Below are positions 15,431-31,182 of a DNA stretch of 64,000 bases, in pieces. The position numbers were made by a program, and so were the translations under genes. The stretch is from Phlyctochytrium arcticum (taxonomy: Eukaryota > Chytridiomycota > Chytridiomycetes > Chytridiales > Chytridiaceae): contig JAHLKI010000010.1 in NCBI GenBank assembly GCA_025602905.1, positions 372,001 through 436,000 on the forward strand. The letters run 5' to 3'. The first letter of the stretch is position 1, and the number at the start of each line of letters is the position of its first letter. Under the pieces are notes generated by a model, which had not been told where the DNA came from, ran no database searches, and saw nothing but the letters and a program-made list of their open reading frames with translations.

Positions 15431-15639
15431 AAGGCCGGCCATCGCTCTTGTATTCTCCTTTCACTCTCCTTCTCTTCTTCTTGATTCTAATTCGCTTCTC
15501 AAAAAATCGTATTCCGCTTCCTCTCTAAGTCATGAATACTCTTATACTCCTATAACCTTACTCACTATACTCTAATAATATCTCGCCCGTTTTATTGGGA
15601 TTCACGCCTTGTTTGTATTTGATGGTTACTCGAATCCAT

Positions 15640-16060
15640 ATTCTGTCAGCCCTTTTTTCACTAATTGATGTACACCCTTTTTTATAATTGATTTTTTGCA
15701 ACTTCCTCTATTTGATGAATACTCAAATCCATATTCTCTCAGCTCTTTTTTTACTAATTGATGTACACCTGTTTTTATAATTGATTTTTTGCAACTTCTT
15801 CTAATTGATGAATACTCAAATTCATATTCTGTCAGCCCTTTTTCACTAATTGATGTACACCTGTTTTTATAATTGATTTTTTGCAACTTCCTCTAATCGA
15901 TGAATACTCAAATTCATATTCTGTCAGCCCTTTTTTCACTAATTGATGTACACCTGTTTTTATAATTGATTTTTTGCAACTTCCTCTAATTGATGAATAC
16001 TCAAATCCATATTCTCTCAGCTCTTTTTTCACTAATTGATGTACATCCTTTTTTAAAATT
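15640..16060. repeat. Minisatellite, ~93-bp unit, about five copies
   Basis: The landmark ACTAATTGATGTACA occurs at 15660, 15753, 15845, 15938 and 16031, giving periods of 93, 92, 93 and 93. The minus strand reads a 31-residue repeat (KKSIIKTGVHQLVKKGLTEY), but the 92-bp unit breaks the frame, so coding is unlikely. Confidence 0.88.
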
Positions 16061-16105
16061 GATTTATCCTCATATCAATACAACACAACCCAGTACTAAC
16101 ATTTG

Positions 16106-16141
16106 TTAGGGGCACTTTCACATTTTCAAAAGTGCCCCTAA
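16106..16141. repeat. AGGGGCACTTT hairpin, copy 1
   Basis: TTAGGGGCACTTT, a 10-bp loop, then AAAGTGCCCCTAA, preceding the methyltransferase gene. A near-identical hairpin lies at 16445-16482, and half-copies lie between them at about 16163-16200, 16256 and 16371. Confidence 0.85.
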
Positions 16142-16444
16142 ATTTCGAGTGGGTCGCATCTTGGGGCACTTTTGAAAAAATAACTGCCCCTAAAAGTGCC
16201 CCCAACTTTTCGTGTGGGGACGCACTTTTTAAAACTCGAATCGTTAGCGTAATCTTTTAGGGGCACTTTTTTTATAAAGTTTGGAGTATATAATTATCCT
16301 TTTTTTTTGAGGTCGCTGCCACCTCACCTCTTTTTTTTTCAAAACTCATTTTCTTTTCCAAATTTCCCTCCAAAAGTGCCCCTAAATCCCCACACGAATT
16401 TACTCTCCATTTCTCTTATATATCCCCTCCCCCTAACGAAAAAA

Positions 16445-16482
16445 TTAGGGGCACTTCTCAAAATGTCAAAAGTGCCCCTAAA
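16445..16482. repeat. AGGGGCACTT hairpin, copy 2
   Basis: TTAGGGGCACTT..AAGTGCCCCTAA, flanked by CCCCTAACGA on the left and CCCCACACGA on the right. The same two flanking motifs recur in the inverted repeats at 24.0-24.2 and 26.9-27.2 kb, tying these regions to one element. Candidate terminal, replication or packaging signal. Confidence 0.8.
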
Positions 16483-16578
16483 TCCCCACACGATTCCCCA
16501 CTCCTCACGCTCTCTCTATCTCTCTGAATTTCTACCTGTCTCCATATCTCGCTCTTGATGTGTATCTTCCCCCACTCA

Positions 16579-17523
16579 TCACCTCTCTCTATCTCTCTGA
16601 ATTTCTACTGTCTCCATTGATCTCACTACATCTTGTATGCATATGCTTCTTTTGTAGAAGACCACATCTTTCCTATATTCCATAACCTTAGCTGCAATCT
16701 TGTTGATCTGCTCTTCACCAACACACTCTTCAAGGTAGATTGCAATGTATTCCATGTGAGAGGGGATATGATCAAACATACTATCTGTCACCCAGTACCA
16801 CCTAAACTGTCTGTAATATCTTCCAATTAACAGAATGTTCTTTGATAACATTGGACGTGTTTTCAACAGATGTATGCCAAGAATACCATATTCTGGGATG
16901 CAAGTGTCAAGTTTTTGTATAGGTGATGTTTCGCCTTTCTCAAAGACAGACCAGAAGGCATCATAGTCGAATATCTTGTTTGTTCTAAACTTGTAAAAGG
17001 ATTTCGCAGGCACAAGTCTCCTGTAGGACAGTTTGAATCCATCATATCTGGCCACAGTTGCAGCATGTGGAAGTACCATACAGATAAGACTTGGATCATA
17101 GTTCTTCACAGCGTGACGGATAAACTCAATAGATAACTTACAGAGTACACCATAAGGCGGATTGAAACCAATTGCAACATTTTTCATGTTAGCTTCATTT
17201 GTTGTCTGTAGGAAATCCTGTACAATGACATTGGAATATGTATCTTCTGGAGAATACATATCATACGATATATATTGGATATTTGGTAACACTTGCTTTA
17301 GCTTGAATTCAAGGTAACCATCTCCGGCAGACGAATCAATGAACCACTGAATATTGTTCTTGATGAGTAACGGCACCAGTTCATCTGTCACAATTGAATC
17401 AATTAGCTCTTTCTTTGTATAATACTGTTCAAGTGAAGTCTTGGCTATTTCTTTTCGTTTTTCAAAGGCCATACTTTTACTTTTATTCAATATTTTCATA
17501 TAATCAACAATGAAACCATTCAT
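16579..17523 (-). CDS. N6-adenine DNA methyltransferase, NPPY type
   Basis: The 314-residue frame has an SSAGDGYLEFKL segment (SAM-binding motif I context) at about residues 64-75 and the catalytic FNPPYG at about residue 119. This is the order of the gamma-type adenine methyltransferases (TaqI/type I-like). There is no target-recognition domain of restriction enzymes that I recognise and no nuclease beside it. The annotated ATG overlaps the divergent Dam-like gene by 14 bp; the inner ATGs (MKILNK at 17499, MAFEKR further in) would remove the overlap. The C-terminal 25 residues run into CT-rich repeats. It probably methylates viral DNA; the target is unknown. Confidence 0.8.
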   Translation of the reverse strand: MNGFIVDYMKILNKSKSMAFEKRKEIAKTSLEQYYTKKELIDSIVTDELVPLLIKNNIQWFIDSSAGDGYLEFKLKQVLPNIQYISYDMYSPEDTYSNVIVQDFLQTTNEANMKNVAIGFNPPYGVLCKLSIEFIRHAVKNYDPSLICMVLPHAATVARYDGFKLSYRRLVPAKSFYKFRTNKIFDYDAFWSVFEKGETSPIQKLDTCIPEYGILGIHLLKTRPMLSKNILLIGRYYRQFRWYWVTDSMFDHIPSHMEYIAIYLEECVGEEQINKIAAKVMEYRKDVVFYKRSICIQDVVRSMETVEIQRDRER

Positions 17524-18319
17524 CTCTTATGTTGGATCCAAATCGAAAATTATGAAAGAGATTGACTCAAAGTTACCCAAAGTCATCAACCGATACTTTG
17601 AACCATTTGTTGGAGGGGGGAGCGTTCTTTTCCATATAGGAACAAAATACCAGAATATAGCGCAACTTTTCATTAATGACAAAGACGTGGAAATCATTAA
17701 TCTGTACAAGTCTGTCCGGGACAACTGTACAGAACTGATTCATGAACTTGAAGAATTGAATACCTACCGAGATAAAGAGTCATTCTTGATGTTCTTGGAC
17801 ATATTCAATAATGAACGGAAAGGAATGAGTCAAGCGGCTAGAAGTGCTTTATATATATACTTGTTGAAGCTCTCTTTCAATAACAATCTGAAGCATGATG
17901 GAGACATCATCAAGCCAACGTATTCAAAAACCAATGCCAAATCCAATCTCTACAAACAGGAAAATATTCAGGAGGTTTCCTCTTTCTTGAGTAAAGTGAA
18001 TATTCTCAACATGGACTATGTCACATTTCTAAAAAGTATTTCCTTCAGAAAGGGTGACTTTGTATTTCTTGATCCTCCATATGATGTAGCTTCAGTCAAA
18101 CAATACTACAGCACAACATTTGAGGAAAGTGACTACAAAATATTGTTATCTGTATGTGATTACTTACACAATGCAGATGTGAACTTTCTCTTGACTCTTG
18201 ATTGCAATGTGCATCACACGAGACTCTTTGAAGAGTATAATGTTCATCAGTATTGCAGATATTCCTTTGTTTCAAACGGACAGAACCAAGACAACGAAAT
18301 AATCATAACAAATTACTAG
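17510..18319 (+). CDS. Dam-like D12-class DNA adenine methyltransferase
   Basis: The 269-residue protein starts ISYVGSKSKIM and continues with FEPFVGGGSVLFHI (motif I, SAM binding) at about residues 32-45. It ends its catalytic part with FLDPPYD at about residue 186. The order and the length of about 270 residues are typical of the Dam/D12 family, which methylates adenine in short palindromes such as GATC. It is divergent from, and overlaps the 5' end of, the NPPY methyltransferase, so both are probably controlled from one shared region. No cognate endonuclease is visible. Confidence 0.9.
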   Translation: MKPFISYVGSKSKIMKEIDSKLPKVINRYFEPFVGGGSVLFHIGTKYQNIAQLFINDKDVEIINLYKSVRDNCTELIHELEELNTYRDKESFLMFLDIFNNERKGMSQAARSALYIYLLKLSFNNNLKHDGDIIKPTYSKTNAKSNLYKQENIQEVSSFLSKVNILNMDYVTFLKSISFRKGDFVFLDPPYDVASVKQYYSTTFEESDYKILLSVCDYLHNADVNFLLTLDCNVHHTRLFEEYNVHQYCRYSFVSNGQNQDNEIIITNY

Positions 18320-18348
18320 TATTTTTTAGTCTTCATATACTAAAAAGA

Positions 18349-18483
18349 ATGAGGTATTTGTATAAAAGTGAGGATCCCTTGTGTGATCAAAATGAACGTA
18401 TTCTAGATATATTTGACGATATTGTAACTCACAAGGACAAATTGAGATTCATTGAATCAGTAAAGAATATCAAGCACAATTGA
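18349..18483 (+). CDS. Small hypothetical ORF (44 aa)
   Basis: ATG at 18349 follows the methyltransferase stop by 29 bp on the same strand. The short acidic/basic product starts MRYLYKSEDP. No family is recognised. It is supported only by position and composition. Confidence 0.35.
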   Translation: MRYLYKSEDPLCDQNERILDIFDDIVTHKDKLRFIESVKNIKHN

Positions 18484-18502
18484 TGAATCCATTATCAAAA
18501 AA

Positions 18503-18619
18503 ATGGAGATGGATATGGAAATTGATATACTGAAAGAGTCATTCAAAGAAACTTTCAAGAAGTCTGAAGTGATGGTCAAAAAGCCTCGGAAAAATCCGAC
18601 CAAGAAGACAAATGTATAA
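18503..18619 (+). CDS. Small basic-tailed ORF (38 aa)
   Basis: The frame begins MEMDMEIDILKE and ends in a Lys/Arg-rich tail (KKPRKNPTKKTNV). It ends 5 bp before the convergent stop of the chromodomain segment. Possibly a small virion or DNA-binding peptide; function unknown. Confidence 0.3.
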   Translation: MEMDMEIDILKESFKETFKKSEVMVKKPRKNPTKKTNV

Positions 18620-18624
18620 TTTGA

Positions 18625-18903
18625 CTACTCTATATTCCGTTCAAATTCATCAAACAATCCTCTCTCATCTTGAACAAATTGAGACCTTTCTTCCCAAGAA
18701 GCTTGTGAAATCGGAAACCCCTTCCACTCTACCAGGTATTGTTTCACTCTGCGGCTGTTGACTCGTTTCATTCTAGAGTCAAGTATTCTCTCTACTTCAA
18801 AAACATCGTCATCTTCATCATCATCATCATTGTTGTTATCCTCATTGTTGTCGTCTTCATTATCCTCTTGTGTTGCTGATTGAGCACCCGGTGCTCCTAT
18901 GTC
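18625..18903 (-). pseudogene. Integrase C-terminal chromodomain, cut off by in-frame TAA
   Basis: Directly after the integrase stop (TAA at 18904-18906) the same minus-strand frame stays open for 92 codons. It runs through an Asn/Asp-rich acidic linker, then a chromodomain-like segment, VFEVERILDSRM...VKQYLVEWKGF...ASWEE, then a stop at 18625-18627. YLVEWKGF and the W-E pair are the classic chromodomain aromatic-cage core. It must once have been, or through stop readthrough may still be, the tail of the integrase. Some Maverick/Polinton and chromovirus integrases end this way. Confidence 0.85.
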
Positions 18904-19959
18904 TTATGTTCCCTCAGGAACCAATCGTAACATATAAGCGGCGAATACACCACTGAGCTCCACATTACTGTCAAGGTCCAGTAGTTTATATCCATCTTGG
19001 TACTGCGGAAACTTGCTTGGTACTCTGTCCGTTACTCTGTAAATCTTGGCACCGAAATATTCTGTTCGAGCACGTTTTAGAAGACCTGTGTCCTTTGCTG
19101 TTATGTAACGACGCACCTTATCTCCAATCTTGAAGGTCTTGAATTTGCTTGAAACACCTTTGTTTCTATCCTTCCTTCGAGCCTCTGCTATTTCTTCAGT
19201 GTTCTCTTTGATGTACTCTGGTGTTCTTGGCTTTCTGCCTGCACCAAATGAGATCGTGTTGTTGATGGACTGAATCACATTTGGTAAGATTTGGACCCAA
19301 TTCTTATTATATTGAGATCCCATATATAGCGCTCGCTTAATGGTCTGATTCATCCTTTCAACCTGACCGTTTGACCACGGGGAATGCGGTTTACTCGTAC
19401 GCCAGAGAATACCATATTCCTCAGCAAAATCCTGAGTTTCTTTACTAACATTCTCAGTTCCATTATCAGATTGGATCGTCTTGATTTCCACGCCATCGTC
19501 AATCATGGATTGAAGCAAAGCAACAACACCGCGCGCATTAACTCTTTTCAAGGGACGTGTGTAGACCTTCTTTGTTAGAATGTCAACTGCTACCACAAGA
19601 GCCATATATCCATTAAATGGCCTCATGAATGTGCAGTCTAACTGAAAGTGTCCCTCCTCCTTCGATAATATCGGCCTCACCATACCACGCTGTGTGTGGG
19701 GTTTCAAAAAACGTTGATACACAGTCTGTTTCTTGAGAAAATCTTCAAGTAATGTTCTCTGACTCAATTTAGAGGTGGGGTATCTTTGTTTGTATAAGAA
19801 ATACAAGCGATCCCTGCCCATCAAGGCGCCACCATTTGTGTACATGTCGAGCAATTGGTTGTAATCTTGTGTTTTGATAGGCTTCCAGTATCTAGCAACT
19901 TCATCTTCATCACTGTTCATATTCTGTCTCTTATTATGAATCATCTTTTTCTTCTTCAT
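18904..19959 (-). CDS. Retroviral-type (rve) DDE integrase of the viral element
   Basis: The core shows all three catalytic acids: Asp in FQLDCTFM, Asp in IQSDNGTEN and Glu in SNGQVERMNQT. Downstream is an SH3-like region (FKIGDKVRRYI) as in Ty3, Polinton and Ginger integrases. The N-terminal quarter (GGALMGRDRLYFLYKQRYP) is probably the HTH-like LTQ/zinc-binding analogue. The longest frame starts at 19959, but ATG 19920 (MNSDEDEV) lies 4 bp after an ATAAGAGACA motif and is the likelier start. The 5' end overlaps the ATPase gene. The ORF ends at a TAA that separates it from a chromodomain. Confidence 0.92.
   Translation of the reverse strand: MKKKKMIHNKRQNMNSDEDEVARYWKPIKTQDYNQLLDMYTNGGALMGRDRLYFLYKQRYPTSKLSQRTLLEDFLKKQTVYQRFLKPHTQRGMVRPILSKEEGHFQLDCTFMRPFNGYMALVVAVDILTKKVYTRPLKRVNARGVVALLQSMIDDGVEIKTIQSDNGTENVSKETQDFAEEYGILWRTSKPHSPWSNGQVERMNQTIKRALYMGSQYNKNWVQILPNVIQSINNTISFGAGRKPRTPEYIKENTEEIAEARRKDRNKGVSSKFKTFKIGDKVRRYITAKDTGLLKRARTEYFGAKIYRVTDRVPSKFPQYQDGYKLLDLDSNVELSGVFAAYMLRLVPEGT
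19925..19934 (-). promoter_or_regulatory. ATAAGAGACA motif upstream of integrase
   Basis: Minus-strand ATAAGAGACA, 4 bp before ATG 19920. It is shared with the primase-helicase and, with one change, the SYGLKH gene. Candidate viral promoter or initiator. Confidence 0.45.
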
Positions 19960-20698
19960 TTACTACTATCTTTGCCGGTTTTCCCTTTATAAAAACATCT
20001 TCATTGCGCAAAGCTTTGACATCTATATAGAGGAATGTATATGGTTCCTTTGTGTAATCATTGGCCATCTCAACAAATTCTTTATTTGATAGGTGACATC
20101 TCAATTCTGGTGCAATTTTTTCCAACTGTGCATCGTTTAGTCTATATAGTATAGCATGAGTAGCATTAACGCGCTGAACTGGTGTACATTGGAGGGTATC
20201 GTGAAAACTTACGCAAATTGACATCCCGTTGTGACGTGCTGTAGAATACAGAATATCGAGCATCTGTTTGATACCACTTGATACTTTCTCCTCATGTTGA
20301 AGTGGTTTGTCAAGAGGTGAGCCAGTTTGTCTGGCCAGTATTCCGTAGTCATCAATGATGAGTAGCATATGATTCTTGTCCTTGTCATTTTGGTAAATCT
20401 TCTTCTGCTTTTCGAATAGATTGTTCAGAATATGATTTGAGATTGTCTGTGAGGTATACACATTGTTATATTTCTTTAAAGCCGTCCAGCTCACATCATC
20501 TATAGAGGGAGAATAGATGATAATATTCCGATAAGTATGAGCTACTTTCTTTATCAGATTGATGATACATGTTGTCTTACCCGAGCGTGAGCTTCCAATA
20601 CACGAAAGGGTGAAAAACTTCTTCGGGTATCCAACAGGAGTATTGTCAACAATCTTTTGTCTGTACTGTTTAGGTACAGAAACTTTCTCCACATTCAT
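19934..20698 (-). CDS. A32-like genome-packaging ATPase (FtsK/HerA superfamily)
   Basis: The 254-residue P-loop protein has Walker A GSSRSGKTT at about residue 35 and Walker B LLIIDDYG at about residue 115. A conserved SFHDTLQ sits at about residue 170, in the sensor position. Length and spacing match the packaging ATPases of Polintons, PLVs, virophages and other nucleocytoplasmic-type viruses, which pump DNA into the capsid. It is divergent from the penton-like gene and lies in the capsid gene cluster. Its 3' end overlaps the longest integrase frame by 26 bp. Confidence 0.9.
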   Translation of the reverse strand: MNVEKVSVPKQYRQKIVDNTPVGYPKKFFTLSCIGSSRSGKTTCIINLIKKVAHTYRNIIIYSPSIDDVSWTALKKYNNVYTSQTISNHILNNLFEKQKKIYQNDKDKNHMLLIIDDYGILARQTGSPLDKPLQHEEKVSSGIKQMLDILYSTARHNGMSICVSFHDTLQCTPVQRVNATHAILYRLNDAQLEKIAPELRCHLSNKEFVEMANDYTKEPYTFLYIDVKALRNEDVFIKGKPAKIVVNEEEKDDS

Positions 20699-20786
20699 TG
20701 CAATAGCTTTTTCTTATTATCTATTGTAGTAATAAAAGGGAAGCAAGCATGTACAGATAGATTGTCCTGAATACTGCAATCCTTAG

Positions 20787-21524
20787 TTCGTTGCAAAACA
20801 GTTTCCAAATCTCACCCCTTGCGATTCATGCGTTCAGAATCGAGGCATTCTCCTTCATCCAATCTTGGGACAGTATTTCGCATGAGTTGAGTAACAACAA
20901 GCTTGTTATTCAAGAAGCAAATGATGCACCTATTACCATCACCCTACCTGATGGTGTTTATGATGTCTCTACCATCTGTACGGCCCTGTCTCAAATTTTG
21001 ACTTCAAATGCTACTCAGCCGTATATCGCTGAATATGATCAAGTCACCCGCAGAATATCACTGAATACAAGTGGTCCTGCAGAATATCACTGAATACAAG
21101 TGGTCCTAAGGATTTCAAGGTCCTTGGGAAAGCAGGGGGAAGTACGTCTTATTACCAGCTCGGGAATATGGATAACTCTGTCTCTGGCAAGAATGTTACA
21201 TTTGATAATCCTGTGAATCTCAGTGCGAGTCAACCCGTCCTATTAACGTCTCGAACATTTTCATCCAATGGTTCTATTTTGTATCCAGCAGGTATTGAGA
21301 GTAATCAGAATATTCTAGCATGTATTCAACCAGACGAATACGGTGATACCGTGACTTGGGTGAATCCCAGTGACAAATTTGTAATATTACCAAACGCGAT
21401 AACACCAAGTTCCATAGATTACAGTATAGTAGACTCTACATCCTTCCACACCATCAAAATGATCCAACCCAGTATTCTGACTATTGGTGTTTTGGATGAT
21501 TATAATGATATTCTGAACTTGTAA
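20787..21524 (+). pseudogene. Penton-like minor capsid protein, broken by 29-bp duplication
   Basis: The N-terminal part (IEAFSFIQSWDSISHEL, then a LPDGVYDVSTICTALSQIL segment) resembles the start of the penton/minor capsid proteins of PLVs and adintoviruses. The C-terminal part, from 21168, is the jelly-roll-like remainder (SIDYSIVDSTSFHTIK). A 29-bp tandem duplication at 21051-21108 shifts the frame, so the two halves are not joined. There is no ATG at the N-terminus; the frame opens after a stop at 20758-20760. CCTTAG at 20781-20786 looks like a splice acceptor, so a short upstream exon is possible. Confidence 0.75.
21051..21108 (+). repeat. 29-bp tandem duplication
   Basis: CAGAATATCACTGAATACAA and the next nine bases occur twice head to tail, with starts at 21051 and 21080. 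The truncated copy of the gene at 1.6-2.3 kb lacks the duplication, so it arose in this copy. Confidence 0.93.
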
Positions 21525-21553
21525 AAATTTTTCTATTGTTCAAAAGGTAAGAA

Positions 21554-22066
21554 ATGTCTGAACAACAAATGCCAATAGAAAACTCGACTCAAGTTCAAGA
21601 ACCTGTTGAATCAGTTACTGAACAAGTAGAAACCAACAGTAGCGATCCTATTGACAAAGTGGTTAATGATGTGAAAGGCAAGAAGAAAGAACGAACCCCC
21701 AAACAGATTGAGAATATGAAGAAAGCTCAGGAAAAACGCACTGAGAACCTACGAGAAATGAAGAAGTTGAAGGAACAACATGATAAAGAGATTGAAAACG
21801 CAAAAATTCATAAGCAAATGGAACGTGATGAAGAGATTGCTAGAACAGCTATTGAGAAGTACGTAGCAGCAAGTAAGCCAAAACGTACCACTGCAAAGAA
21901 AGTAAATGTTTCGAATATTCAAAACAAGAAACAAGAAGTACCAAAAAGACAACCAACTCCAATTCCAACACCAGTTACCACCATGGCGGTTTTTGATGAT
22001 TATGATGATGATGATGACTACTTGCCTCAAAATGATGTATTGCATCACATCTTTGGCAGACGATAG
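21554..22066 (+). CDS. Charged coiled-coil virion-like protein
   Basis: The 170 residues run as follows: acidic N-terminus, a long Lys/Glu helix (about 45-110), a Pro/Thr linker, an acidic DDYDDDDDY patch and the terminal HIFGRR motif. It lies between the penton-like and capsid genes on the same strand, 29 bp after the first and 33 bp before the second, as a late structural operon-like cluster would. It has an intact diverged paralogue at 1089-1610. A scaffold or minor capsid (cement) role is an inference; no named family is recognised. Confidence 0.75.
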   Translation: MSEQQMPIENSTQVQEPVESVTEQVETNSSDPIDKVVNDVKGKKKERTPKQIENMKKAQEKRTENLREMKKLKEQHDKEIENAKIHKQMERDEEIARTAIEKYVAASKPKRTTAKKVNVSNIQNKKQEVPKRQPTPIPTPVTTMAVFDDYDDDDDYLPQNDVLHHIFGRR

Positions 22067-22099
22067 GACAGTTTTTTTTTTGAATACATAGAATAAGTT

Positions 22100-23344
22100 A
22101 TGTCGAATTCCCTAGTTAATCCTACATTCCCTGCAAATTGGAGTTATAAACAAGAAAATTTCTTGATTCATGCAAATCCACTAAGTCAAAACTTTCAAAC
22201 GTTTCGGCCCATGAAAGACACATTTGATTCTCGGTCATCGGGTTCGAATATTGTTATTCCAATTGATTCCAATTCTTCATATTTGAGACCCCAACAAGGT
22301 TTCCTCTCTGGTAAAGTTAATGTATTCAATGCAGATGGTACAATTTACACCAATGCAACGCTAGCATCGGTTGGTATTGCCGGATTTTTTGGAAAACGTG
22401 TTATTATCTGCGGGGGGAAAGAGGTAGATGGCCAGCAATTGGATGACTACGGCCAATTAGCCTGGGATACTTATAGAGAAGAATCTGCAATCAAGAAGAA
22501 ATGGTTGAAACGATATGAGGCTTATAAAAATCCCGATGTATTCAAGAATGCAAAAGGTGAATATAAATTTAAACATATCATGATTAGCGGATTGTCAGAC
22601 AATGATAGGTTTCAACCACTGCCTTTGGCTCACTTGCCCAATAAGGCTATGGAGATTTCATATTCTTTAAAAGTACCTCACAATGCTTTTGTTGATTTGC
22701 CGGCTGGATGCTATTATAAAGTATCCGATGTAAAGTACACAGTCATGCTCGTAACTCCAGAAACTGCATTTATAGCAGCTGCCTGGCAAGGGATTCAGAG
22801 TGGGGAATACCTGAACATACCCTTTACTGGTGTGTCGCAGTTTAGACTCAATTGTAGCGGTGCTTCATTGAATTCGTTCCTCCTTCCGCTTTCAAACGCA
22901 CGCATTAAGGGCCTTACTATTCGTTTCTTGAAAGCAGCAGATCAAGATTCAGTGACAAATGACAAATACAAGCATTATACGTATGCAGGTCTGAAGAGTC
23001 TTCGCTTGAATATAGGAGCATACCGGTGGCCGTTGAATGAGGATCTAGACGTTGATGATATAAGTGTAATGAACAGTTTAACAATGAATAATACAAGTTC
23101 CTTTGCAGAAGAGGATTTCGACTATGATGATGAGAACGATCAGATTATAAAGTTAAACTTCCAATCAATGGATGAAGATGCACTCAGTGCACTCGATACC
23201 CACCAGCAAAATGGCACCGTTCGATTAACCTGTAATTTTGATCCTGCTCCTGCTAACATCCCACCCGTATCAACATCAGTACTTGTAACCGTTTACCATC
23301 ACAAGACGTTGCTCATCGGCAACACAGTTGATGTCATTAATTAG
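22100..23344 (+). CDS. Major capsid protein, double jelly-roll type
   Basis: The 414-residue product has the typical PLV/Polinton/virophage capsid opening: NFQTFRPMKDTFDSR, then SNIVIPIDSNSSYLRP, then an SGKVNVFNADGT strand pair. A helical insert (YGQLAWDTYREESAIKKKW) follows. The second half has jelly-roll-like strands (TAFIAAAWQGIQSGEY, IPFTGVSQFRLNC, LRLNIGAYRWPL) and an acidic surface loop before the last strands (TSVLVTVYHHKTLLI). It is shorter than many known capsid proteins of this class (often 500-600 residues). The frame is intact. Its first three codons also end the truncated copy at 1.05 kb. Confidence 0.85.
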   Translation: MSNSLVNPTFPANWSYKQENFLIHANPLSQNFQTFRPMKDTFDSRSSGSNIVIPIDSNSSYLRPQQGFLSGKVNVFNADGTIYTNATLASVGIAGFFGKRVIICGGKEVDGQQLDDYGQLAWDTYREESAIKKKWLKRYEAYKNPDVFKNAKGEYKFKHIMISGLSDNDRFQPLPLAHLPNKAMEISYSLKVPHNAFVDLPAGCYYKVSDVKYTVMLVTPETAFIAAAWQGIQSGEYLNIPFTGVSQFRLNCSGASLNSFLLPLSNARIKGLTIRFLKAADQDSVTNDKYKHYTYAGLKSLRLNIGAYRWPLNEDLDVDDISVMNSLTMNNTSSFAEEDFDYDDENDQIIKLNFQSMDEDALSALDTHQQNGTVRLTCNFDPAPANIPPVSTSVLVTVYHHKTLLIGNTVDVIN

Positions 23345-23468
23345 AAATCTTCTTTATATACAAGATTTACATCGATACAAAATGAAGCTAGTGATATGCA
23401 AACTATTCATGTAGTAACTCTTAGATAGTGCTCAAACGCAGCTATTATATACAAGATCATGTCAAAAA

Positions 23469-23909
23469 CTAAATGAAGTAGTTTGCTGCCGTATGTTCCT
23501 TGTTCAAGATGCGACATTTTACCCGTGCATTAACAAGTCCCTTTTTGAAAGAGACTTCAAATCCACAGAATATCATTGCCAGGACAAATGTACCGTTTCT
23601 GATATCATGTTTGGTAACCTTTTCAAATACATGTTTCAAGCCATAGCTATTATATTTCGAAAATGTGCGTTGAGAACCGAATATATCTGGTATTGCCATG
23701 ATTGCATATTCAACTTCTTGTAAATCAAAGAGTCGCGCATTTGACTTTACATCGCTTTTTGCACATGAGCGATCATTTTTCAAGTATGGGGACCTTGACC
23801 CCAACTCGTTTCCATATGGTGTGAGTAGTACGTTATTGGGGAGTTTGCTCAATATGTCTTCAATTTCTTCGTATTTCATTCTGTTTTGTCTATTATGCAT
23901 ATTATGCAA
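23469..23909 (-). CDS. SYGLKH-motif viral protein, unknown function
   Basis: The longest frame codes for 146 residues. The likely start is ATG 23879 (MKYEEIEDIL), because an ATAATAGACA motif sits 7 bp before it, inside the longer frame. The C-terminal half reads SYGLKHVFEKVTKHDIRNGTFVLAM and then GFEV. A Ser-Tyr-Gly-Leu-Lys-His helix followed by an NG-x-F turn is a pattern I associate with small proteins of other DNA viruses, but I cannot name the family. It converges on the capsid gene and lies before the inverted repeat flanking the helicase. Confidence 0.6.
   Translation of the reverse strand: MHNMHNRQNRMKYEEIEDILSKLPNNVLLTPYGNELGSRSPYLKNDRSCAKSDVKSNARLFDLQEVEYAIMAIPDIFGSQRTFSKYNSYGLKHVFEKVTKHDIRNGTFVLAMIFCGFEVSFKKGLVNARVKCRILNKEHTAANYFI
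23887..23896 (-). promoter_or_regulatory. ATAATAGACA motif upstream of SYGLKH gene
   Basis: One base differs from the ATAAGAGACA sites at 19925 and 26673. It lies 7 bp upstream of ATG 23879. Confidence 0.4.
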
Positions 23910-23962
23910 GAAATGTAAAATTTACATAATTTACATCAAACGCATTATGCGTTTCAAATGCA

Positions 23963-24238
23963 GGAGAATACACACCTTACACACCTAGAGACACACCTTT
24001 TCTGCTGAAAAGTCCACAGTCATACACTGCCCCTAACGAGAATACACACCTTACACACCTTACACACCTTTTTTCAAAGTTCTTATGAAAAATATGATGT
24101 TCTTAAAGTATGTATATTTTACAAACTAAGCAAAATACAGATGTGTAGGTGTGTTAGTTGTGTTTTTGCCTTCCCCTAACGATTTTTTTTTCTCACAAAA
24201 TACACATCTTTCCCCACACGAAAACACTCTAGAAACCA
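23963..24238. repeat. Long inverted repeat, left arm, flanking primase-helicase
   Basis: This arm of about 270 bp matches the reverse complement of 26945-27217 over its whole length with few differences. It contains ACACACCTT iterons in tandem and the motifs CCCCTAACGA (twice) and CCCCACACGA. It directly abuts the 3' end of the primase-helicase. Confidence 0.93.
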
Positions 24239-26662
24239 TTACAACTTCAAGTACACTGGAGTACCTTTATGTCTACTTTTACTACGATCCTTAATAATCA
24301 AGATTTTTCGAATCTTCATAGAGAATCCTATCTTGGCCATGATAGTGCGAACGCTCCCTGCCTTTTTATCCTCAATGAACTTTATGTATTGATCGAAAAT
24401 ATGATCCATAGTCGTCTCGTGTGTCGCACCCTTCTCATAGTATTCTCCATACACTACATCGCTTCTCATGTTTCCATCCTTTACATCTTCAACAAACATT
24501 TCGAGTGGGCTCATTGCATACACTTTCATATCCTCTTTGGCTTGAGTAAATGGGATATCACCAACCTCAAATTCGGAGAGATCCAATGACATGAGATATG
24601 TGTAGTAGTGATTTGCTGTTTCTTCAGTCAACGTGCCACGCAACTTTCTAAAATATTCTCGATTGCCGATATATTTGCTGGAAGTATGGAGCACCCAATA
24701 ACGGCGATCAGATTTCTCGACTTTAACACAATCATCATCATTAGACAGGAACAGATAGTTGTTAAAATCCCCAATCATCACAGGATCGACTCCTTTAAGC
24801 TCGAGTTTTTGCATCTCTTGAGATATTTTCGACTTCATGATGCTATTATTCTTGTGACCATTCGACCAAAGAACTTCATCACCGATGGTGAATATTTTGC
24901 CAGTACATAGTCCAGTGAATTGACCACACAAGTCATCAATTGTGTTCACATACAGATAATGATCCATTCTGATAATCTCCTTTCCAAACCATTCAAACAA
25001 CAAGCTCTTACCAGTTCCTTGGTCACCATGAATTGCAGGAGATACCTCGGTCTTCCTATACGGTTTCTGAAGAAACGATGCAAACCAACGCTCCCCGTAT
25101 TCCATCTGTTCATTCTTACAGTCATAAAATACCTCAAACATATGATTTTGCACCGGCTTAATGATCTCCGGGTCATATGAATCCAGTAATTTGGCCTTGA
25201 ATCCACGAAACATATTCAGTTCTAGTCCGGGTTTGTCACCAATGTAACGCGGATCCATCACGATATGTTTAAAAGTAAGCAACTCTCTGGAACGGGCCCA
25301 CATGCTGAAAAGAGAAACAACTTTTTTCTCGCCTTTTGACTTTATGGTCATAGTGAGATGTGAGGTTGCGCTCACTGTATTGATATAATTCCGTACAATC
25401 CATTTTTCGGCTGGATTACTTCTAAAGCAGTAGAATGCGGATTTCTGGTGAGTAACCTTGGAGAAATACTTGTTGAGACAATGAATCAATTGAGACTTGT
25501 CCTTTTTGTGTATGGCAGCGGCTGTCTTGCAACAGAGTTCGTGCTTTTCAGGTGAATAACTGTCTTCATCATTAGTGGACTCCAAATCGACCAGAGTAAA
25601 TTCATCTTCAGAATCAGATTCCTCACAGTCATACATGTCATATTTGGACAAAACGCCTTTAATAATTTGCTGCTTCTTTGGTGCACGTATCGCTTTGGAT
25701 TTGCAAGAGAAACATGACAAATTCACACAAGTCTCGTTGACATAAATACAAGAGTGTTTCTTTTCAGAATGTTCTTTGCGCGGATTCACCAAACATCGCA
25801 AGCAATTAGGGACCACTTTGATGGTGTCATCCTTGCGAAAGGTGTCCCAAGTAGTTTCCATATCAAAATAAGTGTCGAGTACTTCAATTTGAATATTCTT
25901 GTCCAATGCCTTCCAACCATCTTTGTCTACTTGACCAACTGGTGCCGCCTCCTGTTTGACGTGAAGTTCTTCAAGTTTCCACACCGCTGTGTTGAATCCA
26001 CTCGAAACATTCTGAATCAAGTATTTGTCCAGAGACTCATCATCGACCCGGTACAGAATACGAGAATCAGATGGAGATTTTTGTTTATCAACACAGCACA
26101 TCTTTCGCATGCTTTGATAGACGGATATATCAAATAATGGACCTTTAACATCTTTCAAGTAATCCGGCAAGTTCTCAGTAGGAAAGTAGTTGCTAAATGC
26201 TCGAGTCAATTCAGCATGAGTAGTTACCAAGTTGGAAAAGATGCGCCACGAAATTTTGTGACCATTCTTATTCTTTTTGACAACAAATCCTTCTCTGTCG
26301 CGACATGCAAACACAAGTTTATATTCTGATTCATCATTCTTCAATCGATCTTTGAATGCTTGTGTGACAAATTGTCGCACCTCTTCTTCATCCTCAGCAC
26401 TTGGAATTTCTTTCACAACATCCGTATCAAAATCGACGAATGCACAGATTGGTTCATTCTCATCGACTTTACCAATGAATTCACAAAGATACGGAAATCC
26501 TCTTTGTTTCTCAAGATATTCAGTCAATGTCCACTCCAAGATTTCATTGTTACCAAACTGATCTTTGCGAAAAAACATCTTCTTTTCCAGAGGTTCATAT
26601 GTGCTCAACTTCTTGATTCGTTTGTTGCTGTTTGTCATTTTTGTAGGTTTTTGCTGAGACAT
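24239..26662 (-). CDS. Primase-superfamily 3 helicase (D5-like) replication protein
   Basis: The C-terminal half is an SF3 helicase: Walker A HGDQGTGKS at about residue 545, Walker B-like IFTIGDEV, and a NYLFLSNDDDCVKV / DRRYWVL segment (motif C and downstream). The N-terminal half carries archaeo-eukaryotic primase-like motifs, ICAFVDFDTD (metal-binding acids) and HKISWRIFSN. Cys pairs at about residues 290-330 (CLRCL...C...CFSC) could bind zinc. ATG 26662 follows ATAAGAGACA by 10 bp. This fusion initiates and unwinds genome replication in PLVs, virophages and large DNA viruses. No separate DNA polymerase is seen, so a host or helper polymerase would be needed. Confidence 0.9.
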   Translation of the reverse strand: MSQQKPTKMTNSNKRIKKLSTYEPLEKKMFFRKDQFGNNEILEWTLTEYLEKQRGFPYLCEFIGKVDENEPICAFVDFDTDVVKEIPSAEDEEEVRQFVTQAFKDRLKNDESEYKLVFACRDREGFVVKKNKNGHKISWRIFSNLVTTHAELTRAFSNYFPTENLPDYLKDVKGPLFDISVYQSMRKMCCVDKQKSPSDSRILYRVDDESLDKYLIQNVSSGFNTAVWKLEELHVKQEAAPVGQVDKDGWKALDKNIQIEVLDTYFDMETTWDTFRKDDTIKVVPNCLRCLVNPRKEHSEKKHSCIYVNETCVNLSCFSCKSKAIRAPKKQQIIKGVLSKYDMYDCEESDSEDEFTLVDLESTNDEDSYSPEKHELCCKTAAAIHKKDKSQLIHCLNKYFSKVTHQKSAFYCFRSNPAEKWIVRNYINTVSATSHLTMTIKSKGEKKVVSLFSMWARSRELLTFKHIVMDPRYIGDKPGLELNMFRGFKAKLLDSYDPEIIKPVQNHMFEVFYDCKNEQMEYGERWFASFLQKPYRKTEVSPAIHGDQGTGKSLLFEWFGKEIIRMDHYLYVNTIDDLCGQFTGLCTGKIFTIGDEVLWSNGHKNNSIMKSKISQEMQKLELKGVDPVMIGDFNNYLFLSNDDDCVKVEKSDRRYWVLHTSSKYIGNREYFRKLRGTLTEETANHYYTYLMSLDLSEFEVGDIPFTQAKEDMKVYAMSPLEMFVEDVKDGNMRSDVVYGEYYEKGATHETTMDHIFDQYIKFIEDKKAGSVRTIMAKIGFSMKIRKILIIKDRSKSRHKGTPVYLKL

Positions 26663-26672
26663 TAGCAATACT

Positions 26673-26682
26673 TGTCTCTTAT
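26673..26682 (-). promoter_or_regulatory. ATAAGAGACA motif upstream of primase-helicase
   Basis: Identical to the 10-mer before the integrase start; 10 bp upstream of ATG 26662, preceded by an AT-rich TTTATAAAT. Confidence 0.45.
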
Positions 26683-26764
26683 TTATAAAAAAAAGCTATC
26701 AATATGCTGAAACGCACTCAATTTTTTATTATGTCATTTATGTAATAAGTGATATCATACAAGA

Positions 26765-26947
26765 ATGTCAAAGAACATGTATGAAGCAATTGTATCGCGT
26801 TTTGATCAGGAGAGACGCTATATGGCAAAGTCTATCTTGGCATTGTCTAAAGAGTTGGGGATAGATCGAAATACATTGAGTAAAATATACAAAGGGAAAC
26901 CATCGGCTTGGTCCAAGTACATTGTAATTAAAAAGGTATCAGGCTGA
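26765..26947 (+). CDS. Small helix-turn-helix protein (60 aa)
   Basis: MAKSILALSKELGIDRNT followed by LSKIYKGKPSAWSKY has the spacing of a HTH/homeodomain-like DNA-binding fold (ALSKELGI-DRNTLSKIYKG). It starts 102 bp from the divergent primase-helicase ATG and its stop sits at the edge of the right inverted-repeat arm. It might bind the iterons or the shared upstream region; that is inference. Confidence 0.55.
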   Translation: MSKNMYEAIVSRFDQERRYMAKSILALSKELGIDRNTLSKIYKGKPSAWSKYIVIKKVSG

Positions 26948-27217
26948 AGAAACATACCTGTTTCGTGTGGGGAAAGGTGTGTTTTTTGTGAGTAAAAAAT
27001 CGTTAGGGGAATGCAAAAACACAACTTACACACCTACACATCTGTATTTTGCTTAGTTTGTAAAATATACATACTTTAATAATATCCTTTTTTTCATAAT
27101 AACTTTGAAAAAAGGTGTGTAAGGTGTGTAAGGTGTGTATTCTCGTTAGGGGCAGTGTATGGCTGTGGACTTTTCAGCAGAAAAGGTGTGTCTCTAGGTG
27201 TGTCAAGGTGTGTATAT
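26945..27217. repeat. Long inverted repeat, right arm
   Basis: Reverse-complement partner of 23963-24238. It carries CGTGTGGGG, TCGTTAGGGG (two copies) and three tandem AAGGTGTGT-type iterons. Together the arms enclose only the primase-helicase and the small HTH gene. Confidence 0.93.
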
Positions 27218-27281
27218 GGTAACAAATTCAATTATTATTACAAAGCAGAGGTCATATTATACAAAGTATTTCACATCTAGT

Positions 27282-28415
27282 CTAACTATCCTTACAATAA
27301 GCACCGCTCTCCTTCTTATCGTGATGCATATTCCTACTAAAGAATTTGATTGCGTTTTGGCTGAGTCGATCCTTGCGAATCATAGTAGCGTGCGTTCGGC
27401 GAAGGTTCAAGGGACGATACAACTTTGCGTCTCCTTTCAGCACATTCTTCAAAGACGCTTCAACTCGTCCTCCATATCCATCGAAGGCGTTCTTCTCGTC
27501 TTTTTCACCATAGGCCTTCCCGTTTACATCGTAAAAAACGTATTCCTTCACTGCGCGAAACCTTTTCACAAATCGGGTTAGTACCTCACCAGCATACTGA
27601 GGATCAAGAAACGTATTCTTCAATTCTTCATAAGGAGGGGTAGCAAGATGTTGCAGAAAAGGGTGTCGGAGGTCATCGTCAGCCTGACTTGCAGTACTGT
27701 CAATGGTATCCATGTCAGACGATCCACTAGCATTCGTATTCTTGGTAATTGCAGATCGGTCTACCTTTCTAGTATTCCAAAGAATGGAACAGTTGTCGAA
27801 ATCGTCATAGATGAGAATATTGTCCTTTGCCCAATTGATATTCGGATACTTGAAATTTTTCAAAGTGGCCAAGTTGAGTCGCACATTGTAGAAGAGACAA
27901 GCCAGAATACCAATGACGCATTCTTGAAGATAGAAGATTTGCTTTGAATTGGCAACCGTGCAATTGTAAACCTCGAGTGCGACTTCTTCATAGTTTGCCT
28001 TGATTTTTTCACAGTCGTTGATCCAAGTTTTGCTTAGTGCTTCTACGTTAGGGTCTACGTCATTGCGACCCTCCTGAATGCGCTTCTCGATTTCGCGGGC
28101 CATGGCGTAAATGGGTAGGGAATAGCTCTTTTGCTCATCTTCGTCCATCTCATAGAGCTCCTTTTCTCTCCCAACTCTGATTGCACGACCAACAAGCCGA
28201 AGATAATCTTTCAAGGTGCTATCGCTGGGCTTATTTCCTTTCTTTGTTTTTCCAAGTAATGCTTGTTCAATGATAGAGTTGACCCGACTGAGATCCAAGA
28301 GACACTCCCAAGTATCAAACATGCCCCGAGTTTGAAAGTCTTGAATAGTTTTCAGTTCATTCTTGTTCTTGAAAATAACACTAAGATTGGCAGTTTTGAG
28401 AGGGCAGAGAGTCAT
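27282..28415 (-). CDS. Tyrosine recombinase/integrase
   Basis: The 377-residue protein has a helical N-terminal domain and a C-terminal catalytic domain. The first Arg lies in YNVRLNLATLKNF, the box II Arg in LNLRRTHATMI, and a His...Tyr end in MHHDKKESGAYC. Spacing fits the R...LRR...H...Y pattern of phage-type tyrosine recombinases, with the His before box II replaced by Asn. Between about residues 225 and 260 there is a Ser/Asp-rich insertion. It starts 99 bp before the next leftward ORF and has no frame breaks. It would make a second integration or resolution enzyme beside the DDE integrase. Confidence 0.78.
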   Translation of the reverse strand: MTLCPLKTANLSVIFKNKNELKTIQDFQTRGMFDTWECLLDLSRVNSIIEQALLGKTKKGNKPSDSTLKDYLRLVGRAIRVGREKELYEMDEDEQKSYSLPIYAMAREIEKRIQEGRNDVDPNVEALSKTWINDCEKIKANYEEVALEVYNCTVANSKQIFYLQECVIGILACLFYNVRLNLATLKNFKYPNINWAKDNILIYDDFDNCSILWNTRKVDRSAITKNTNASGSSDMDTIDSTASQADDDLRHPFLQHLATPPYEELKNTFLDPQYAGEVLTRFVKRFRAVKEYVFYDVNGKAYGEKDEKNAFDGYGGRVEASLKNVLKGDAKLYRPLNLRRTHATMIRKDRLSQNAIKFFSRNMHHDKKESGAYCKDS

Positions 28416-28608
28416 TGTCGATGTTTTTGGTTTGGATATTACTATTAGGTACCTTATATTGTAGCTGAGGAAAAAGTTTGGACTTGCCCAAAAATCGGCG
28501 GGTTTATATAAATAATAATCCTATCGATAGGATGTTTCTACTGATTGAAATATGAGTGAATCTCACATAGTCCATGTTGAAACTACGAATACTTAAATTT
28601 TCACCATA

Positions 28609-30378
28609 TTAAAGACGACTTGAAGTTTGCTTGAATTTCTTATCATAGGAAAGTTTCTCTGGTGCCTGACGTTTGCGTCCTGAGCGTCTCGGCGGAGCTT
28701 CATCCATAATTGGCACATTAGTAACAGGGGACGTACGTGTTGTTGAGTTGCGACTTAAAGTCTGTTGAAAGTTCTCATCGTATGACAGTCTGTCAGGTGC
28801 TTGGCTTTGCCGTGAGCTGCGTCTAAGATTCTCATTGAGGTTAGGCAAATCTGTTACGGGGGATTTTCGATTTGTTGGATTCTCCCCAAATATTCCTGCT
28901 CGAATGTTTCGCTCAGTTGGTGTCGTGGTCACGGGACTTGGACGCTGTAATAAAGGGGAATTCCTCGTTGATGCAGACCGAGGTGAGTTGTTTCTAGGCG
29001 GCGAAGTAACTCCAACATCTATTACTGGACTTGAACGCTGCGAACGCTGCTGCGACTTAGGTGAACTCCAGGGACTCGTATTCATTGGGCTACCACCAAC
29101 ACCTGATACAGGAACTTCATCAAGCATTCCAGGAGATGGATACTTGATTGGAGAGGTTCTTGGAATAGGTGGTACTTCAGGATAGATTTTTTCCGGCTTT
29201 ACTTGACCAAAGATCTGCTCTCGTAGACCAGAATACGGTACGTTTCCAAAGTTAGGCACGTTTGGGGATATATTCTTTGTATCAATTGGATATGGTTTAT
29301 TTGTTAATCGAGGCGCAACCTGTGTACCTCTCGATTCGACTTCTGTTACCCTTTTCAAATTTTGCAACAGACTAATCATATTTGCGGTTTCCTTTAACGC
29401 AACAGGGGAAACATCTTTCACAGCCTTCAATGTTCGTATCATGAAATCTGGGGTTGGATGTTCAGGAATACTCTCGGGATTGATACCAATACTCTCTAGA
29501 AGATGTCGGAATACGGTGTACGTCTGCAAAGTCATGGAACCAATCTGCTGATTCTGACTACCAAGTTGATCCCGCAAGATATTGTTGGATGCCTTCAGTT
29601 GATCAAGATAGATTTGGAATTTGACATCATTTGAAAACAGTGCGTCTAGAACATCTCAGTCAATTTCAGTCTCTGTTTGTGTATCTGTTGTTCGCAAATC
29701 TTTGACTGGAATATCATTGACTAATGTTTGCTCTCGATCGAATCCAGGAACGGGTGTACGAGGCACATTTCCTATCGCACCCGTTTCAACTGATTCATTT
29801 TTGAAGGTATCCGTTTGCTGCATGACGCTTCGATTGCCCAAGATGACTTTTTCTGTTGGACCATTGGCTCTTGTTGGTAATTTTGAATCTTCTTTATATA
29901 CAACACCAGGTTTGTCACCCAGACCGTCGTTATTTGTCTGGGCCCGAATATATCCCGGTTGTGAAAACATGTTATAGGTACCGTCGCCGTTGGATTGCGT
30001 TGCTATTGTACGTGACATCGGGATAGCTCGACCGCTGCGTGGGAATAAATTGTTCTTATCTAGTTCGTCAAAGTAATACTGATTGGCTTTCTCTTTTTGA
30101 ACGGCATGCAACGCTTCCACTGCTTCCTTTGACACTCTGGTCACTTTCGGACCAGGTGTCCATGAAGGACTCTCAAGTTGCAATATTTGTTCTTTTTGCT
30201 GTTTGACCGTTCCAATATTGGGCACATAGAACTGCTTGTGGAATCCTCGATCATATGTGTTTTTTGGACCACGTAAACCATTTATGAATGCATATTGTGT
30301 ACCATGAATATTCACAATTGAGTCTTCATTTGCAAATATTCCTTGCCTTGTTCGAGCTGGCAAGAGACCTAACGACAT
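28609..30378 (-). pseudogene. Large disordered viral protein split by an in-frame TGA
   Basis: Two minus-strand frames, 29656-30378 and 28609-29655, are in the same phase with only TGA (29656-29658) between them, so they form one roughly 590-codon gene. The N-terminal part (MSLGLLPARTRQGIFANEDSIV...) is folded-looking. The C-terminal part is Pro/Ser/Arg-rich with repeated RRS(S/G)RxxQAPxxLSYD blocks, two copies about 50 residues apart. ATG 30378 is preferred because it lies 12 bp from the divergent gene at 30391. It may be a virion or DNA-condensing protein; no family is recognised. The TGA is either decay or a readthrough site. Confidence 0.6.
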
Positions 30379-30390
30379 CTCTGTAATAAA

Positions 30391-30720
30391 ATGTATTCTT
30401 ATAATAAGGATACGGAAAAGAAATACATGGTCGGCTTTCTGAATAGAGCGAGGGGGCGATTGAATGGTCTCCTTGTAAGTAAACCAATCAGACAAACCAG
30501 AAACTTACTAAACAATGCGGTGAATATTGCTACGAAGGGGCACAAGCTTCTCACACATGTAAACAGCGGGATTCAAAGCAATGAGCTGTTCCACAATTCA
30601 AAAGTGAAAGACTACTCCAGACAAGGACAGGGACTCGCCGATCTCGGATTGAAGCGGGTCACGGAATATCACAAGGGTACCGACAAGTTTCTCGATCATC
30701 TCGAGAAAGCGCCGATCTGA
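30391..30720 (+). CDS. Small basic viral protein (109 aa)
   Basis: MYSYNKDTEKKYMVGFLN is followed by a basic amphipathic helix region and GLADLGLKRVTEYHKGTDKF. It is divergent from the large disordered gene with 12 bp between ATGs, so a shared promoter is likely. Small basic helical proteins in this position in PLVs are often minor virion components; that is an analogy only. Confidence 0.55.
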   Translation: MYSYNKDTEKKYMVGFLNRARGRLNGLLVSKPIRQTRNLLNNAVNIATKGHKLLTHVNSGIQSNELFHNSKVKDYSRQGQGLADLGLKRVTEYHKGTDKFLDHLEKAPI

Positions 30721-30773
30721 GATACAGGGGAAAATATCTAACTGAAATTGAAAAAAAACGAATATATGATGAA

Positions 30774-31132: not shown

Positions 31133-31182
31133 CCCCTAAAGTCAAAGTATGAGTAAAACGTGATATCAAGTCATGCAAGTGA

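What the first reader, a model, noticed from the sequence alone, without database searches (positions are those of the whole stretch)
16106..30720. Endogenous Polinton-like virus with an unusual gene set in a fungal genome
Seen: capsid, penton-like, A32-like ATPase, rve integrase, primase-SF3 helicase, tyrosine recombinase and two DNA methyltransferases in one AT-rich block. Known: true Polintons/Mavericks carry protein-primed polymerase B and an adenoviral-type protease; PLVs and virophages often use primase-helicases. Inference: this is a hybrid-type fungal PLV lineage, perhaps undescribed, with an unusually short capsid protein (414 aa).
Basis: partly seen in the sequence, partly recalled or inferred. 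Interest (0 to 1): 0.92.

Follow-up and report, generated by a model that had tools for sequence, protein, structure and literature searches.

The report
Palindrome-ended viruses in a chytrid genome
This stretch of a soil chytrid fungus is a partly broken integrated DNA virus, one of dozens in that genome; many of the inserts are bounded by long palindromes that may act as hairpin ends when the viral DNA is copied.

Summary
The window holds a decayed Polinton-like provirus of the chytrid Phlyctochytrium arcticum. It starts at 15214 and stops, truncated, near 33358 inside a fibre-like gene; no right end was found. ATPase, rve integrase, SF3-type helicase and Dam-type methylase are real. The capsid is probable, the 'penton' is a broken piece, and the tyrosine recombinase rests on conserved residues only.

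The genome holds 44 capsid-gene places in about four clades (22-96% identity). One relative outside this genome was found among 5.8 billion proteins.

Unexpected feature: elements are bounded by palindromes of about 46-69 bp (TG...CA), with the same core at both ends. Motifs fixing only the outer letters match 54 and 85 places (reversed controls 0 and 1); 65 of the 73 places listed are palindromic through the free core. Eleven of 13 tested pairs show an exact 5-bp target duplication. Neighbouring elements can share one palindrome. Some elements are near-symmetrical, with arms up to 10.6 kb. None of 14 PolB matches lies inside a listed palindrome pair.

Best reading: rve-integrated viruses with self-complementary, hairpin-type ends and exchanged gene modules. 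Integration is shown; hairpin replication is inferred.

The parts
15214..33358 (.). Truncated provirus: left end at 15214; right end not found
   Evidence: Alignment with the sister copy on C4 (91-94% DNA identity over 16569-28703, 78-87% over 29114-31626); end structure; fibre gene cut off
15214..15265 (.). Terminal palindrome, 52 bp, TG...CA; left 5-mer outside it is GATGG
   Evidence: folds as a perfect hairpin, z -11.2
15266..15432 (.). Short subterminal repeats of the terminal inverted repeat
15619..16065 (.). 93-bp tandem repeats, 4.8 copies
16579..17523 (-). Putative DNA methylase, 314 aa, weak
   Evidence: phrog_799, E 7.9e-5
17510..18319 (+). Dam-type N6-adenine methylase, 269 aa
   Evidence: PF02086, TIGR00571
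18904..19959 (-). rve (retroviral-type) integrase, 351 aa
   Evidence: PF00665; retroviral integrases in PDB
19934..20698 (-). A32-type packaging ATPase, 254 aa
   Evidence: PF04665; 32 proteins with its family profile
21168..21524 (+). 118-aa C-terminal piece of a penton candidate
   Evidence: 239-248 aa in three other copies; no fold evidence
21554..22066 (+). 170-aa ORF between penton candidate and capsid candidate
   Evidence: Conserved position
22100..23344 (+). Probable major capsid protein, 414 aa
   Evidence: 50 matches in the genome; sub-threshold PF16903 in 3 of 7 members
23469..23900 (-). 143-aa ORF, also in the C4 sister
23979..24217 (+). Inverted repeat on one side of the helicase gene, with 9-bp iterons
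24239..26662 (-). Primase-type SF3 helicase, 807 aa
   Evidence: PF19263; PHROG primases; PDB 6k9c
26965..27203 (-). Second, inverted copy of the iteron-bearing repeat (92% complementary)
27282..28415 (-). Putative tyrosine recombinase, 377 aa, by conserved residues only
   Evidence: 13 matches in the genome including itself; alignment; no profile match
28609..29535 (-). 308-aa ORF; fused with the next one in some copies
29656..30378 (-). 240-aa ORF, conserved in clades A and B
30391..30720 (+). 109-aa ORF, conserved in elements of clades A to D
31183..31695 (-). 170-aa ORF, also in the C4 sister (75%)
32780..33358 (+). Fragment (192 aa) of a fibre-like protein that is 1600-1895 aa in three other copies
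   Evidence: 58-94% identity to them over 98-165 aa; PF06536 avian adenovirus fibre, 20.6 bits, below cut-off 22.7

Best explanation
The window holds a decayed provirus of a Polinton-like virus lineage of chytrid fungi. SHOWN: (1) its capsid gene has relatives at 44 places of this genome, in about four clades; (2) 16 pairs of palindromes with the same core enclose element-sized stretches, with genes of clade A, B, C or D or none of those searched; (3) most tested elements have a 5-bp target duplication outside TG...CA ends, as expected of an rve-type integrase; (4) integrase and capsid/ATPase genes have different nearest relatives, so modules were exchanged; (5) the helicase gene lies between inverted iteron-bearing repeats that also occur near both ends of a sister element. 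INFERRED: the free viral DNA is linear with self-complementary ends; each end folds into a hairpin and primes its own completion, or is a closed hairpin, so that no protein primer is needed; the primase-helicase starts copying at the iterons; fold-back copying gives the near-symmetrical elements; the integrase inserts copies at their TG...CA ends; recombination between two terminal palindromes leaves solo palindromes. My estimates: provirus of a Polinton-like lineage 0.95; palindromic ends with rve-type integration 0.95; hairpin-type end replication 0.5; recombinase acting on the palindromes 0.2. The figure in the confidence field is for the whole account including the inferred part.
For: Homologues and clades. 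Palindromes: 54 and 85 places against reversed controls 0 and 1; 65 of 73 listed places palindromic at 9 or more of the 10 outer core positions, chance per site 3e-5. Same-core pairs. Target duplications: 11 of 13 tested same-core pairs, plus one element without palindromes (C9:387383-408646), the two-element C18 array as a unit, and two solo palindromes. Shared palindromes at C18:135668 and C4:1407293, a hybrid one at C4:1431258. Long inverted arms in four clade A elements: 1.1, 3.26, 8.9 and 10.6 kb, up to 100% identical. Asymmetric palindrome centres occur both as mirror images (C25 exactly; C6:775923 and C7 nearly, by my reading) and in the same orientation (C1, and C3:1361095, which shares its flanks). 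0 of 14 PolB matches lie inside a listed pair. Iteron-bearing repeats.
Against: No free genome, virion or replication product was seen. Two of 13 tested pairs lack an exact duplication: C4:900747 matches 4 of 5, and C6:103489 has inverted identical flanks of at least 194 bp. The C4 array has no matching outer flanks. One element integrated with ends lacking the palindrome, so it is not needed in every case. The palindrome lists were capped (50 of 54 and 50 of 85 shown), and the true ends of PolB-bearing elements were not determined, so the link between replication gene and ends is weak; a non-palindromic match (C36:185259) lies about 1 kb from a short PolB match. For several palindrome-bounded elements no replication gene was identified. 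A palindrome (C4:361619) lies between the helicase and ATPase genes of the D element used in the comparison, so nesting is possible. The capsid fold is unproven. Identical arms could also come from gene conversion after integration.
Confidence: 0.55

Rival explanations
1. The palindromes are attachment sites of a tyrosine recombinase. Circular viral DNA inserts at a palindrome already present in the genome and ends up with one copy on each side; hairpins play no part.
For: A shared palindrome between neighbours with a target duplication only outside the whole C18 array is what such insertion would give; the half-palindromes there fit one element lying in the centre of the other's palindrome. 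A candidate recombinase occurs in clades A and C and in one B element.
Against: Matching 5-bp duplications outside the palindromes point to rve-type integration. The candidate recombinase has no profile match and was not found in most clade D elements. Cores are the same at both ends of an element but differ between families.
Confidence: 0.2
2. The palindromes are only the recognition ends of the integrase: a terminal inverted repeat doubled by chance early on and kept because the integrase reads both sides; replication uses another, unseen end mechanism such as a terminal protein.
For: The outer letters are shared by all families while the cores differ, as expected of an integrase site. Small elements of 1.7 and 4.6 kb without any searched gene have the same ends.
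Against: Cores differ in sequence and yet remain palindromic, which a pure end-recognition site does not require. Near-symmetrical elements suggest fold-back copying.
Confidence: 0.25
3. An ordinary decayed Polinton/Maverick with nothing new.
For: rve integrase, A32 ATPase, capsid and target duplications are Polinton-like; PolB occurs near four clade B capsid genes.
Confidence: 0.05
4. The palindromes and symmetrical elements are assembly artefacts.
For: Arms are up to 100% identical over 9.9 kb; the C6 element has inverted identical flanks of at least 194 bp.
Against: Arms are separated by different centres of 3.2 and 5.3 kb, and outer flanks are different host DNA with matching 5-bp duplications. 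The short palindromes recur in many families on many contigs.
Confidence: 0.04

Closest known systems
Polinton-like viruses (PMC4642659, passages read; S. punctatus group of PMC7805220, passages read)
   Same: MCP candidate, ATPase, primase-helicase, terminal inverted repeats, integrated in a eukaryote; one was reported in the chytrid Spizellomyces punctatus
   Different: PMC4642659 states that PLV lack rve with one exception; this has rve. Capsid family without a close relative in the databases searched. I saw no report of terminal palindromes.
Polintons/Mavericks
   Same: rve integrase, A32 ATPase, terminal inverted repeats, target duplication; clade B relatives carry PolB nearby
   Different: No PolB or protease domain recognised in the window element; TG...CA palindromic ends; 5-bp instead of the 6-bp duplication that I recall for Polintons
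Hairpin-ended or self-priming viruses (poxviruses, parvoviruses; features recalled)
   Same: Self-complementary ends; symmetrical fold-back forms; both orientations of asymmetric palindrome centres; D5-like helicase in clade C
   Different: Hairpin-ended free DNA has not been seen; integrates through an rve-type integrase; other proteins not compared
Protelomerase systems such as phage N15 (recalled; PMC12624138 seen as a listing only)
   Same: Palindromic site of about 50 bp and a candidate tyrosine recombinase
   Different: The candidate shows no detectable similarity to solved structures; palindromes also bound elements in which it was not found

Membership tests
Polinton-like viruses | Double jelly-roll major capsid protein | tested here: inconclusive
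   PF16903 below cut-off in 3 of 7 members; no PDB match; structure prediction off
Polinton-like viruses | A32-type packaging ATPase | tested here: met
   PF04665, E 7.7e-10
Polinton-like viruses | Minor capsid (penton) protein | tested here: inconclusive
   Conserved gene between ATPase and capsid gene, no domain or PDB match; broken in the window
Polinton-like viruses | Capsid related by sequence to a described PLV group | not tested
   No described PLV capsid sequence was at hand; database searches found only P0002 outside this genome
Polinton/Maverick | rve integrase | tested here: met
   PF00665, PDB integrases
Polinton/Maverick | Protein-primed PolB | tested here: not met
   No PolB domain in the window element's ORFs; PF03175 occurs elsewhere in the genome but not here
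Polinton/Maverick | Adenovirus-type protease | tested here: not met
   No protease domain in the ORFs scanned from the element; the element is truncated, so a lost gene is possible
Polinton/Maverick | 6-bp target duplication (recalled) | tested here: not met
   5 bp in 11 of 13 related pairs; the window element itself lacks its right end
Hairpin-ended viruses | Self-complementary termini | tested here: met
   for the window; for relatives
Hairpin-ended viruses | Free genome with closed or self-primed hairpin ends | not testable with these tools
   Needs viral DNA
Tyrosine recombinases | Catalytic R-K-R-H-Y residues in a recognised fold | tested here: inconclusive
   R, K and R-R/H-H/Y positions conserved in the alignment, the C-terminal ones in 6 of 7 rows (one row is cut); no profile or PDB match

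The most novel reading that the evidence does not exclude
A lineage of Polinton-like viruses in fungi uses an iteron-flanked primase-helicase cassette in place of protein-primed PolB and has hairpin-type palindromic ends: an intermediate between protein-primed Polintons and hairpin-ended large DNA viruses, still integrating through an rve integrase, with symmetrical fold-back elements, gene-poor passengers and solo palindromes as by-products.
Probability: 0.4. Interest if true: 0.9.

Novelty: new variant of a known kind. Interest (0 to 1): 0.78.

Why it matters
How ancestors of large DNA viruses moved from protein-primed to hairpin-ended, primase-based replication is an open question. Here both kinds of replication gene occur in related elements of one chytrid, together with clear ends, target duplications and recombinants, so the change becomes open to direct study. 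The survey of protist insertions in PMC10120064 excluded Fungi (passage read), so the lineage may be under-reported.

Tried and rejected
Scans of viral contigs with the window, clade C and clade D capsid proteins, P0002, the window ATPase and an ATPase alignment found no relative; no clade B capsid was scanned, and a mixed capsid alignment could not be scanned. These scans are seeded by short exact peptide patterns, so distant relatives can be missed. Two palindrome patterns in viral contigs gave 7 stretches and 0; in the stored parts of the 7 none of the window proteins was found, and one match is palindromic (12 of 13 core positions), four partly (8 of 11), two not. PF16903 against the own genome: no match, and no control rang either, so uninformative. 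PDB searches for capsid, penton candidate, recombinase and fibre gave nothing relevant. Rejected: that neighbours on C18 came to share a palindrome by deletion between two separate inserts (the outer flanks of the array match); an ordinary Polinton; treating the capsid fold as proven. The 50 capsid rows became 44 places because six fragment rows were merged with neighbours; three of the 44 are weak (E 7e-5 to 1.2e-4). The nearest-palindrome count (27 of 44 within 30 kb) is crude: it includes neighbours' palindromes and one non-palindromic match. By position, 13 of 44 lie between a pair of one family; one search adds palindromes 2-3 kb from the C19 and C45 capsid genes. All these are lower bounds because lists were capped.

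Literature: nine searches. Among the papers listed I saw none that describes terminal palindromes in Polintons or PLV, or viruses of P. arcticum; the library holds open-licence papers only. Of eight papers I saw search passages, of the others the listing only.
Full report
WHERE IT IS. The window is contig C10:372001-436000 of a 31.5 Mb genome of 91 contigs. Proteins named as Phlyctochytrium arcticum (P0003, P0004, P0005, P0020) lie on contigs with the lengths of C4 and C3, so the host is that chytrid (Chytridiomycota).

WHAT IS IN THE WINDOW. From the left: palindrome 15214-15265, repeats, putative methylase, Dam-type methylase, rve integrase, A32 ATPase, a piece of a penton candidate, a 170-aa ORF, the 414-aa capsid candidate, a 143-aa ORF, the helicase between inverted repeats, the putative recombinase, ORFs of 308, 240, 109 and 170 aa, and a fragment of a fibre-like gene ending at 33358. 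The nearest sister, on C4 from 1370138, is 91-94% identical in DNA over 16569-28703 and 78-87% over 29114-31626; it has a second end at 1407344. The fibre-like frame is 1600 aa there, 1895 aa on C18 and 1741 aa at C4:351425-356650. The window element is truncated and no right end was found in the window.

RELATIVES. The capsid protein has 50 matches in the genome, which I merged into 44 places: clade A 77-96% identity, B 34-42%, C 24-27%, D 22-26%, plus a 56-residue fragment at 36% (the clade borders are mine). In the protein database, besides proteins of this genome, only P0002 was found, a 408-aa protein on a 2290-bp ENA contig (42%). The ATPase profile finds 32 proteins: three of this genome, three of Gaertneriomyces semiglobifer (55-61% identity), and others of Powellomyces hirtus, Thoreauomyces humboldtii, Gaertneriomyces sp. 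and Spizellomyces 'palustris', the rest from unnamed or metagenome sources. ATPases of this kind are thus spread among chytrids.

MOSAIC. One element per clade was compared. Capsid: A-B 37%, C-D 44%, other pairs 23-31%. ATPase: A-B 58%, C-D 56%, others 23-27%. Integrase: A-D 39%, C-D 33%, A-C 30%, B with the others 25-28%. The window helicase is 74-76% identical to that at C4:357358-359750, which lies in the palindrome pair C4:348975-373784 with an ATPase 26-30% identical to the window's. A further palindrome at C4:361619 lies between those two genes, so the helicase may belong to a nested element. The clade C element encodes a different Prim-Pol/D5 protein. PolB has 14 matches, four of them within 9 kb of clade B capsid genes (C3, C7, C25, C54).

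INVERTED REPEATS ROUND THE HELICASE. In the window they are 239 bp, 92% complementary. The clade C primase gene and the C4:357358 helicase gene are also flanked by inverted repeats (88% and 80%). The clade A repeat carries 9-bp iterons; the C4:357358 repeats carry a similar motif with a changed letter (by reading). The clade A repeat also lies about 440-450 bp inside both ends of the C4 sister and near an element end on C2. A replication origin is the simplest reading; that is inference.

ENDS. Clade A ends carry a 52-bp palindrome followed by short repeats. Palindromes with other cores but the same outer letters led to a pattern that fixes eight letters on each side and leaves 18-48 free. It matches 54 places, the reversed control 0; a related pattern matches 85, control 1. 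The answers list 50 of 54 and 50 of 85. Of the 73 different places so listed, 65 are palindromic at 9 or more of the 10 outer core positions. Of the other 8, two are slightly imperfect clade A ends, four belong to one non-palindromic repeat, and C36:185259 and C4:1142488 stand alone. Sixteen pairs of one family enclose element-sized stretches (1.7-39 kb): clade A on C4, C9 and C18, B on C6, C on C3 and C4, D on C1, C15, C40 and C4, two with only some of the genes (C13, C3:1361095) and four with none of the six genes searched (C25, C32, C6:775923, C7).

TARGET DUPLICATIONS. Thirteen of the 16 pairs could be tested; C25 was not fetched, and two share a palindrome with a neighbour. Eleven match at all five letters outside TG...CA; two of these, C1 and C3:1361095, share flanks and count as one. 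C4:900747 matches 4 of 5. C6:103489 has flanks that are inverted copies of each other over at least 194 bp and no duplication. C9:387383-408646, whose ends lack the palindrome, still has a duplication. Two solo palindromes (C17:430589, C8:569209) have one each, like solo LTRs; a third (C11) is damaged on one side.

ARRAYS. On C18 two elements share the palindrome at 135668, and the array as a whole is flanked by GGTGC; the single-letter differences between half-palindromes fit the first element lying in the centre of the second one's palindrome. On C4 a shared palindrome lies at 1407293 and a hybrid one at 1431258, but the outer flanks do not match.

SYMMETRY. Terminal inverted repeats measure 1.1 kb (99.3%), 3.26 kb (99.9%), 8.9 kb (97-100%) and 10.6 kb (96% in the outer 0.7 kb, 100% over 9.9 kb) in four clade A elements. 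Inverted pairs of matches on C1, C2, C24, C30, C40 and C58 suggest the same elsewhere; their DNA was not fetched. In C9:387383-408646 both arms carry the same gene fragments: either decay came before the duplication, or the arms convert each other.

MECHANISM. The ends show rve-type integration with a 5-bp duplication. Hairpin-type replication is inferred from self-complementary ends (fold z -11.2), symmetrical forms, both orientations of asymmetric centres and the absence of PolB from the listed palindrome pairs. The last point is weak, since lists were capped and the ends of PolB-bearing elements are unknown.

PRIOR ART. PMC7805220 reports an integrated PLV in S. punctatus and PLV genes in Allomyces (passages read). 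PMC10120064 excluded Fungi (passage read). PMC4642659 states that PLV lack rve with one exception (passage read). Among the papers listed by nine searches I saw none on terminal palindromes in this group; whether this lineage is the S. punctatus group could not be tested.

Noticed in passing
window 1042-2320: A second, inverted fragment of a related element (start of the capsid gene and the two genes before it), 74% identical in DNA to the main element and about 79% to copies on C9 and C18.
   Followed up: partly
G000 C6:103489-127694: A clade B element whose host flanks are inverted identical copies of each other over at least 194 bp, with no target duplication; unexplained.
   Followed up: partly
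G000 C1:1308264-1323982 and C3:1361095-1387075: Two elements of different length with the same flanks and target duplication, probably a segmental duplication.
   Followed up: no
G000 C2:707991, C2:1495513, C3:71734, C9:383642: A non-palindromic dispersed repeat that also carries the outer letters GTGCATA...TATGCAC.
   Followed up: no
L023:6427-7608: A MULE-like transposase ORF in the unique centre of the symmetrical C18 element (PF10551, E 6.3e-6).
   Followed up: no
window 31700-32970: Stretch inside the element limits without DNA similarity to the C4 sister, GC about 48%, possibly an insertion.
   Followed up: no
window 58346-63313 and 57020-58198: Host genes: a tuberin-like protein (Tuberin, Rap_GAP domains) and an M28 peptidase.
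   Followed up: no
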